The translations under genes were made by a program, and so were the position numbers. From Parvibaculum sp. (lineage in GTDB: Bacteria > Pseudomonadota > Alphaproteobacteria > Parvibaculales > Parvibaculaceae): a stretch of 64,000 nucleotides of DNA. A model generated the notes under the pieces. That model saw nothing but the letters and a program-made list of their open reading frames with translations. It was not told the origin of the DNA and made no database searches. Numbering within the stretch: position 1 is the first letter of the stretch; each line of letters opens with the position of its first letter. The DNA lies in NCBI RefSeq assembly GCF_030651915.1, contig NZ_JAUSBV010000002.1, positions 262,414 through 326,413 on the forward strand. Reading direction: 5' to 3'. This document shows, piece after piece, positions 57,107 to 59,755 of this stretch.

Positions 57107-57364
57107 CTATCTGTTGTCGAGTTGAGCCCGGACCGCGTGCAGCCCGTCGCGGGTGATGCGATAGGGGCTGCCCTCGCGCGAGGCGATCAGGCCGCGCCGG
57201 CGCAAACGGCGGAAGGTTGCCAATGAGCAATCGCTCAAAACCCAGCCCTCGCGTGTGACGCAGATGGCGGTGCGGATTTTTCCTTTTTCATCTTTTTCGA
57301 CGCGGATCGTACCGCCGCGCGCCAGCGCATGGAGCGTGCGCTGCTCGAATTTCGAGACGTTCAT
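57107..57364 (-). CDS. YjhX family protein (toxin-like, UPF0386)
   Basis: The 85-residue length equals that of E. coli YjhX, and the sequence follows it: [44 protein letters not shown] and [25 protein letters not shown]. coli YjhX has been described as a toxin with YjhQ as partner; no YjhQ-like acetyltransferase is adjacent here. The fold is a winged-helix type, so a DNA-related role is equally possible. The ATG at 57364 is the family start; more upstream ATGs are not conserved. Confidence 0.9.
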
Positions 57365-57437: not shown

Positions 57438-59045
57438 GTGGCCCGTCTTTTCAAATGGCCCGTCCGAGAGGGAAAACCCGTCTCAGCGGCCGCGCTTTTC
57501 TCCGGCTACAGACATCAACGCTCCATCGCGTGTGGTGCTTCATCTCTAACCGAAGGCCGCGCGGTCCGTCAATCCGCGCGGCTGCTGCCGGCGGCGGCAC
57601 TGTTCATTTTTGCCGCGCTGTTGCCGCCAGGCGACGCCCGCGCCGACGGTCACGACGTCGAGGGCGGCATGATCGCCTGGCCCGAACACGAGATGGAGCG
57701 CGCACTCGACTTCCTGATCGAGCGGCGGATGAACGATCTCGACATACGCGGTGCCGCGGTCGCCGTCGTCGTCGACGGCAAGCTCGTCTTCGAACGCGGC
57801 TACGGCGTCGGCGATATCGGTGGCGAAGTGCCCGTCACCGAGCACACGCTTTTCGAGGCCGCCTCGCTCGGCAAGCCCATTGTGGCGTTCGGGGCGCTGC
57901 TGCTGGCGCGGGAGCGGAAACTCGCGCTCGACGCACCGGTCACCGAGAGTTTCGATGCGCCCTGGCTCAAGGATGCACATGACCGTGCGACGGTGACGCC
58001 GCGCCATTTGCTGACGCACAGGTCCGGCCTCTCCAACAATCTGCGCTTCGGCTCGCGCAGCACGGGTTTCGAGCCCGGCTCGCAATTTTCCTATTCGGGT
58101 GTCGGCTACATGTATCTTGCCGAGGTGATGGCCGGGATCGAGGAAACCGGCTTCGACCGGTTGATGCGCGAGCGCGTTTTTGCGCCGCTCGGTATGCATT
58201 CGTCGGGCTACACGGTGCCCGAGGCGCTGGTCGACAGGGTGGCGCGGCCGCATGTGCCGCTGTGGATGCCGATCGTCGCGCTTGTCGGGCCGGCGCTTTG
58301 CTTCCTTGCGATCCTCGGATTTCTGACGCTGCTCATCGTCCGTTTCGGATTTGAGCGGTTGCGCGTCCGGCCGGTCGAGTTGCTGCCGGCGGTGGTGCTG
58401 TCGCCCTTGCTGGCGGGCGGCCTTGTTTTTCTGGGCTTCGGATTCTGGGCGCTGATTTTCAGTCTCGGCTATCTGCTGGTCTGGCTTGTCGCGCTGAGCG
58501 CTGTCGCCTTCTCGCTGCAATATCTGCGGGTCGTTCTCGATCAAGGGCGGAGCGACCGGGTGATCTCGCGCGGTCGCATGCGGCGTCACGGCCTCGATCC
58601 GGCGATGCTCGGCATCGCCTTTGTCGCCAGTCTGCTTTTCATGTTCTGGCAGGTGCCGGGGCCGATGCGGAACGGCGACGATCTCAATCCGGCGTCGTCG
58701 TTGCGGTCGAGCGCCCATGATCTCGGGCTCTTCATGGCGGGGTTCATCAACGGCGCGGTGATCGGGCCGGAATGGCGCGCCCGCATGGTCTCGGAGCGCG
58801 TCGAGATCGGCACGCGTGGCCGCAGCCGCGTCGGTTGGGGTCTCGGTTTCGGTACGCGCGAAACGGCCACAAGTTTCACGGCTTGGCAATGGGGCTCCAA
58901 TGTCGGTTCGAAAAGCCTGATGGTGATCGACCCGTCGCGCCGCGCCGGCGTCGTCGTACTGACCAACGCCGAAAGCGGCGACCGCCTTGTTCAGGAAGTT
59001 GCCGGGCATGTCCTGGGCATTGATGGGTCATGGCGTCTGCCCTGA
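57438..59045 (+). CDS. Serine hydrolase (beta-lactamase family) with internal four-helix membrane insert
   Basis: The protein (535 residues if GTG 57438 is used; the true start is uncertain, no ribosome site seen) has a signal-like segment ([23 protein letters not shown]) and a class C beta-lactamase/EstB-type domain with SLGK (Ser143, Lys146) and YSG (Tyr219) motifs. After GMHSSGY and VARPH the domain is interrupted by about 140 residues with four hydrophobic helices (roughly 275-302, 313-341, 342-366, 388-405), then resumes at [20 protein letters not shown]. The substrate is unknown; peptidoglycan peptides or esters are usual for the family. Confidence 0.85.
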
Positions 59046-59083
59046 TCGCGGGCCAAGGATTCGCAACGCGGGAGGTGGGCGTG

Positions 59084-59755
59084 ATGGAAAAATTCGAGAA
59101 GATTTTCACTCGGGCCGCCAAGCGCCATGGCGGTGCCAAGGCGGTTGAGGCGAACCTCTCCAAACCGAAAAGCGCGGCCGCACTCAGGAAGATTTCCGAC
59201 GACCGTTGGCTCGCCGGCATGACCCGTGCCGTTTTTCAGGCCGGCTTCGTCTGGAAGATCATCGAGAACAAATGGCCGGGCTTCGAGGAAGCCTTTGACG
59301 GCTTCGATCCGAATCGCATCGCCTTCTACACCGACGAGAAGATCGGACGCCTTGCCAGCGATGCGCGGATCGTGCGCAACGGGCAGAAAATCATGGCAAC
59401 GCGCGACAATGCACGCTTCGTCGTCGAACTGGCGAAGGAGCACGGCTCGGCCGGCGCCTTCTTCGCGGCTTCGAGGCCCGAACAATTTGCTGCGTTGCTC
59501 GATGTCCTGAAGAAGCGCGGCAACCGCCTGTCCGGCGCCTCGGCACAATTTTTCCTGCGCCAGATGGGCGTCGATAGCTGGATCCTGTCGCCGTCGGTTG
59601 TCGCCGCGCTTGTCAATGCCGGGGTCGTCGACAAGGCGCCGACTTCGCGCAAGGCGATGGAGGCTGTGCAGGCCGCCTTCACGCAATGGCGCAAGGAAAG
59701 CGGCCGCTCGCTGACCGAGATCAGCCGGGTGCTGGCGATGTCGGCGGATGCTTAG
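59084..59755 (+). CDS. DNA-3-methyladenine glycosylase I-family protein (Tag-like)
   Basis: The 223-residue protein has the adenine-glycosylase pattern MTRAVFQAGFVWKIIENKWPGFEEAFDGFDPNRIAFYTDEKIGRLASDARIVRNGQKI, with the typical Trp and Glu of the base pocket. The Cys/His zinc-site residues of E. coli Tag are not visible, so it belongs to the shorter Tag-like branch. The start is ATG 59084 (GTG 59081 is possible) with GGAGG upstream. It probably excises alkylated adenine. Confidence 0.85.
   Translation: MEKFEKIFTRAAKRHGGAKAVEANLSKPKSAAALRKISDDRWLAGMTRAVFQAGFVWKIIENKWPGFEEAFDGFDPNRIAFYTDEKIGRLASDARIVRNGQKIMATRDNARFVVELAKEHGSAGAFFAASRPEQFAALLDVLKKRGNRLSGASAQFFLRQMGVDSWILSPSVVAALVNAGVVDKAPTSRKAMEAVQAAFTQWRKESGRSLTEISRVLAMSADA

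What the first reader, a model, noticed from the sequence alone, without database searches (positions are those of the whole stretch)
57438..59045. Beta-lactamase-fold serine hydrolase split by a four-helix membrane domain
The SxxK and YxG parts of the hydrolase lie before residue 272 and the late [19 protein letters not shown] segment after residue 412; the intervening ~140 residues form four hydrophobic helices. Class C-type hydrolases normally run straight through this region. An even number of helices returns the chain to the same side, so both halves could still form one active site next to the membrane, for example for a lipid-linked or peptidoglycan substrate. Architecture is read from the sequence; the mechanism is inference.
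Basis: partly seen in the sequence, partly recalled or inferred. Interest (0 to 1): 0.6.

Follow-up and report, generated by a model that had tools for sequence, protein, structure and literature searches.

The report
Membrane domain splitting a serine hydrolase
A beta-lactamase-type enzyme in Parvibaculum carries four membrane helices inside its catalytic domain, which should press the active site against the membrane; the same layout recurs in distant phyla, and several close relatives kept the protein after losing its catalytic residues.

Summary
The ORF (535 aa, 57438-59045 +) is one PF00144/S12 domain interrupted by four transmembrane helices. AlphaFold2 on a 39-sequence alignment (pLDDT 91, pTM 0.88) puts both halves in one class C fold (Z about 34, about 305 residues on AmpC) with the helices extruded. 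All 39 homologues have four TM segments, with positive loops placed as expected if both halves are periplasmic. The insert sits at the same site in Parvibaculaceae and in Chloroflexota, Acidobacteriota, KSB1, Rhodothermota, Spirochaetota and other Alphaproteobacteria; 17 of 17 distinct ordinary S12 controls lack it. By alignment it falls at the end of the loop that, in the colibactin peptidase ClbP, dips into the membrane and clasps a C-terminal TM domain. The likeliest reading is a membrane-facing serine hydrolase for a lipidic or membrane-held substrate; no substrate is shown.

Those copies remain under purifying selection (dN/dS 0.07-0.24), with damage concentrated in the active-site motifs. 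They look like maintained pseudoenzymes. This is a new variant of a known kind (membrane-tethered S12 hydrolases). The start codon is unresolved.

The parts
57438..59045 (+). whole ORF, S12 hydrolase with internal TM domain (535 aa; GTG start uncertain)
57570..57644 (+). signal-peptide-like hydrophobic segment ([24 protein letters not shown])
   Evidence: sequence; distant homologues have signal peptides or lipoboxes at the same place
57663..58259 (+). first half of the class C hydrolase fold (mature 1-199)
57864..57875 (+). SxxK motif (SLGK, mature 68-71)
58092..58100 (+). YxN-position motif, here YSG (mature 144-146)
58263..58349 (+). TM helix 1 (mature 201-229)
58371..58439 (+). TM helix 2 (mature 237-259); arginine-rich loop before it (cytoplasmic)
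58443..58553 (+). TM helix 3 (mature 261-297); Gly260 in the tight periplasmic turn before it is nearly invariant across phyla
58590..58646 (+). TM helix 4 (mature 310-328); arginine-rich loop before it (cytoplasmic)
58650..59042 (+). second half of the class C hydrolase fold (mature 330-460)
58677..58733 (+). [19 protein letters not shown], first conserved segment after the insert (mature 339-357)
58887..58895 (+). third catalytic motif position (HxG/KTG), here QWG (mature 409-411)

Best explanation
The protein is an inner-membrane S12 serine hydrolase whose catalytic domain lies in the periplasm. Its membrane anchor is a four-helix bundle inserted in the loop between the YxG part and the late SLRSSAHDL helix, the loop that in ClbP dips into the membrane under the active site. 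Shown computationally: one fold, the same insertion site across phyla, four TM segments, both halves on one side of the membrane. Inferred: the bundle holds the catalytic cleft against the bilayer, and SxxK/Y hydrolyses an amphiphilic or membrane-held amide or ester (lipopeptide, acylated D-amino-acid peptide or lipid ester) that reaches the cleft from the membrane. In at least three Parvibaculaceae lineages the catalytic residues were lost while the fold and the anchor stayed under selection, so the protein also has a use that needs no hydrolysis, most likely binding the same kind of ligand.
For: Single fold: pLDDT 91.1, pTM 0.88; VIA alignments span model residues 7-454 on AmpC, EstB and other S12 folds at Z 34-37 with 303-323 residues aligned. 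Topology: four TM segments in 39/39, K/R counts mostly 2-7 / 0-1 / 1-7 in loops 1-2 / 2-3 / 3-4. Same-site recurrence: full-length matches in Chloroflexota, KSB1, Rhodothermota, Acidobacteriota, Spirochaetota, Emcibacter and Sphingosinicella. Site next to the membrane face: HMM alignment places the insert between ClbP residues 242 and 257 (offset from S95); ClbP's beta3-beta4 loop (218-254) dips into the membrane and F243 touches TM1 (PMC9889268). Catalytic residues S68, K71, Y144 are 16/16 in the intact set. Pseudoenzyme lineages.
Against: No substrate, activity or experimental topology is available. The Asn of YxN is Gly in every intact member and the third motif is Q/H-x-G. Gene neighbours give no pathway clue. 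Many close orthologues lack catalytic residues, so catalysis may not be the conserved function of the clade.
Confidence: 0.6

Rival explanations
1. The four helices are only an anchor. The protein is an ordinary promiscuous family VIII-type periplasmic esterase/peptidase acting on soluble substrates, and the insert does not shape the cleft.
For: The closest solved folds include esterases IS11, EstB and EstCE1. Insert sequence is poorly conserved across phyla (mean column identity 34% in A3).
Against: The insert site is invariant and replaces a cleft-side loop rather than lying at a terminus, where ordinary S12 anchors lie. Gly260 in the periplasmic TM2-TM3 turn, R227 and the P332/P334 exit are conserved across phyla.
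Confidence: 0.22
2. The conserved role in Parvibaculum is not enzymatic: the protein is a ligand-binding receptor or scaffold, and the window protein only happens to keep the motif.
For: At least three losses of SxxK at the same locus with purifying selection; only one copy per genome at the threshold used.
Against: The window clade and all ten sequences outside the family keep S, K and Y exactly, which needs continuing selection for catalysis there. No cytoplasmic signalling domain is present.
Confidence: 0.12
3. A peptidoglycan D,D-carboxypeptidase or low-molecular-mass PBP working close to the membrane on lipid II or nascent wall peptides.
For: The fold matches R61 DD-peptidase and Flp.
Against: Sporadic occurrence (6 of 289 alphaproteobacterial genomes), repeated catalytic loss, and no wall genes nearby.
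Confidence: 0.06

Closest known systems
ClbP and the N-acyl-D-Asn prodrug-activating peptidases (XcnG, ZmaM, AmiB type), PMC9889268
   Same: S12 catalytic domain in the periplasm, helical TM domain in the inner membrane, catalytic cleft turned to the membrane; the same loop region (ClbP 218-254) contacts the TM domain; Asn331 has an equivalent in the window protein (WGSN).
   Different: ClbP's three helices are C-terminal; here four helices lie inside the catalytic domain. S188 of YxS is Gly here. No NRPS genes nearby.
AmpC / class C beta-lactamases
   Same: Same fold (Z about 34), SxxK, catalytic Tyr.
   Different: AmpC runs straight through the insertion site; YAN is YSG and KTG is QWG here; the class C NCBIfam model gives 56.5 bits against a cut-off of 415.
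Family VIII esterases (EstB, IS11, EstCE1, Est-Y29)
   Same: Same fold and SxxK/Y; IS11 is the top VIA match (Z 36.8).
   Different: Soluble, with no membrane insert.
S12 hydrolases with C-terminal TM helices (for example L106, L107, L108)
   Same: PF00144 plus helical membrane bundle.
   Different: Helices follow the intact domain; no detectable profile similarity between the L107 and L108 bundles and the internal insert.

Membership tests
Peptidase S12 / PF00144 | PF00144 above gathering score | tested here: met
   182.9 bits against 27; 39 of 39 homologues match PF00144
Peptidase S12 / PF00144 | SxxK catalytic motif | tested here: met
   SLGK in the window protein; lost in 20 of 42 homologues
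Peptidase S12 / PF00144 | YxN motif | tested here: inconclusive
   The catalytic Tyr is present, but the Asn is Gly (YSG) in all intact members; the third position also varies in known members (Ser188 in ClbP, PMC9889268), so Gly alone does not exclude membership
Peptidase S12 / PF00144 | class C fold formed by the whole chain | tested here: met
ClbP-like prodrug-activating peptidases | C-terminal three-helix TM domain after the catalytic domain | tested here: not met
   four helices inside the domain, none at the C-terminus
ClbP-like prodrug-activating peptidases | neighbouring NRPS/biosynthetic genes | tested here: not met
   locus is folD-akr-yjhX-hydrolase-tag-ppa-argG
ClbP-like prodrug-activating peptidases | Ser188 and Asn331 contacting D-Asn | tested here: not met
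   Ser188 position is Gly; Asn331 position is Asn in the window protein
ClbP-like prodrug-activating peptidases | cleavage of N-acyl-D-Asn prodrugs | not testable with these tools
   needs an assay
Class C beta-lactamase | NCBIfam class C model above cut-off | tested here: not met
   56.5 bits against 415
Class C beta-lactamase | KTG third motif | tested here: not met
   QWG
Class C beta-lactamase | beta-lactam hydrolysis | not testable with these tools
   needs an assay

The most novel reading that the evidence does not exclude
A cross-phylum S12 subfamily in which a TM bundle built into the cleft-side loop forms part of the substrate site for a membrane-embedded ligand, and which has been converted in place, at least three times in one bacterial family, from an enzyme into a selected non-catalytic membrane-ligand receptor.
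Probability: 0.35. Interest if true: 0.68.

Novelty: new variant of a known kind. Interest (0 to 1): 0.52.

Why it matters
Membrane-tethered S12 hydrolases such as ClbP place their TM domain after the catalytic domain. Here the same geometry seems to be reached by putting the bundle inside the cleft-side loop, which suggests more than one route to a membrane-facing active site in this fold. The Parvibaculaceae series, with intact and catalytically dead orthologues at one locus, is a ready-made natural experiment on what such a protein does without catalysis.

Tried and rejected
Single-sequence folding gave a useless model (pLDDT 45) and was replaced by the alignment-based model. Pfam finds no family in the insert: scattered single-member matches at E 0.004 or weaker were treated as chance. 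Homology of the insert to C-terminal TM bundles of two other S12 proteins (L107, L108): none detected. Gene neighbourhoods of distant homologues: no shared genes. No plasmid copies at E 1e-30. Pseudogene decay of the SxxK-less copies was rejected because frames are open (one exception: L031 has an internal TGA), dN/dS is 0.07-0.24 and fold columns are kept. Paralogy as the source of the SxxK-less copies was rejected because the locus is identical in all 31 Parvibaculaceae loci, except where a contig ends early. Literature searches found no description of an internal TM domain in an S12 hydrolase, but only open-access text was searched. Searches were malformed requests.

Full report
What is there. 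The window belongs to a Parvibaculum genome (Parvibaculaceae, Alphaproteobacteria), judged by the 97-88% matches. The ORF 57438-59045 (+) gives 535 residues. Pfam reports PF00144 at 1.2e-53 in two stretches, the first ending at residue 272. Below, residue numbers are 'mature' numbers counted from 57663; add 75 for ORF numbers. The catalytic motifs are SLGK 68-71, YSG 144-146 and QWG 409-411. A signal-peptide-like segment precedes residue 1. The translation start is not settled: GTG 57438 is the nearest canonical start, there is none between it and the hydrophobic segment, and the DNA upstream is itself conserved.

One fold with an extra membrane domain. Folding the single sequence failed. With a 39-member alignment AlphaFold2 gave pLDDT 91.1 and pTM 0.88, with helices 201-229, 237-259, 261-297 and 313-326 and only one poor stretch (299-306, the loop between helices 3 and 4). 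Foldseek and VIA-align match the model to S12 folds over residues 7-454 with about 305 residues aligned at rmsd about 2.5 and Z about 34: AmpC, EstB, EstCE1 and others, with IS11 highest at 36.8. Both halves therefore make one class C fold. A sequence profile of the family against the PDB drops out near position 198-206 and resumes near 343-348 in the alignments shown. Ordinary S12 proteins, including paralogues in the window's own genome and relatives from other genomes (19 rows, 17 distinct proteins if the two loci of one 426-aa gene and the near-identical pair L081/L082 are counted once), run through this point without TM helices. Where they have TM segments these are near the N-terminus, weak and marginal within the first half, or at the C-terminus.

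Topology. Four hydrophobic segments occur at the insert in 39 of 39 homologues. Lysine plus arginine counts in loops 1-2, 2-3 and 3-4 are mostly 2-7, 0-1 and 1-7. With an N-terminal signal peptide or lipobox (visible) this is the positive-inside pattern of a protein that starts and ends in the periplasm. This is a sequence-based prediction, not an experiment.

Recurrence. Every same-genus genome examined (27 of 27, own included) and 7 of 10 from other genera of the family carry the protein at E 1e-40 or better; none of 24 genomes from other families of the class does. A named-genome scan found full-length relatives with the insert at the same site in Anaerolineae and other Chloroflexota, KSB1, Rhodothermales, Acidobacteriota, Treponema, Emcibacter and, after extending the match, Sphingosinicella. 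In those genomes one protein matches the family profile full-length (about 410-560 bits; the Treponema member in two pieces, 240 and 148 bits), while other S12 proteins reach at most 123 bits and match mainly the first half. The family is sporadic: 6 of 289 alphaproteobacterial, 1 of 299 phylum-wide and 1 of 201 further genomes. These are lower bounds, since only 11-17 candidates per genome were scored in most genomes.

Where the insert sits. In the profile alignment to ClbP, the catalytic S95 is chain residue 55, an offset of 40; the insert then falls between ClbP residues 242 and 257. [quoted passage not shown] In the window protein the bundle grows out of the end of this loop, and the periplasmic TM2-TM3 turn carries a Gly (260) conserved in 15 of 16 intact and 13 of 13 degenerate members. 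My inference is that both proteins reach the same geometry by different routes.

Repeated loss of catalysis. SxxK is intact in the window clade, in some other Parvibaculaceae and in every member outside the family (22 rows), but lost in 20 of 42: GLGL, GIGL, SIGL, SLGM, AIGF, ELGE, ALGQ, ALGK and GFGA. A maximum-likelihood tree needs three changes of state, and well-supported branches force three; with intact outgroups on several phyla these read as losses. The locus folD-akr-X-ppa-argG is the same in all 31 Parvibaculaceae loci, apart from contigs that end early, so these are orthologues. Pairwise dN/dS among degenerate copies is 0.07-0.24 against 0.06-0.16 among intact ones. Of the columns conserved at 80% or more across phyla in the intact set, ten fall below 50% in the degenerate set: 67, 68, 71, 81, 85, 125, 144, 411, 413 and 418. 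Eight of these lie in or beside the SxxK, SGLSN, YxG and QxG-SN motifs; the two others, 81 and 85, lie in the helix after SxxK. Fold and insert columns are kept. That is the pattern of maintained pseudoenzymes rather than decaying genes.

Function. No substrate can be named from these data. The geometry, the ClbP precedent and the loss of Asn from YxN argue for a membrane-presented amide or ester substrate rather than beta-lactams; this is inference. Flanking genes (an aldo/keto-reductase-like ORF and FolD upstream, a YjhX-like gene on the other strand, a 3-methyladenine-glycosylase-like gene downstream) look unrelated, and neighbours of the distant homologues are not shared.

Verdict. It is a new variant of a known kind: membrane-tethered S12 hydrolases are known, and in the searched literature and in the S12 structures examined I found none with the TM domain inside the fold. 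That negative is limited to open-access text and to the structures listed.

Noticed in passing
L039-L050, L058-L061, L063-L065, L074 (orthologues of window 57663-59042): Catalytic SxxK and the third motif are lost at least three times in Parvibaculaceae orthologues that stay under purifying selection at the same locus.
   Followed up: yes
window 57107-57364 (-): YjhX-like protein (PF09857, annotated as a putative toxin of a toxin-antitoxin pair) divergently placed upstream of the hydrolase; no match to it in many family members outside the genus.
   Followed up: no
window 57440-57560: Intergenic stretch with a DNA block conserved across the genus (CAGCGGCCGCGCTTTTCTCC..CAGACATCAACGCTCC); possibly a promoter or leader of yjhX or of the hydrolase, and it complicates the choice of start codon.
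   Followed up: partly
window 59030-59755 (+): 3-methyladenine-DNA-glycosylase-like gene (PF03352 over residues 67-146 only) whose first listed start overlaps the hydrolase stop by 16 bases; no match at this locus in several relatives.
   Followed up: no
L108 (Sphingosinicella genome): A 701-residue S12 hydrolase with four TM helices at its C-terminus in a genome that also has the internal-insert form (L075): the two layouts coexist.
   Followed up: partly
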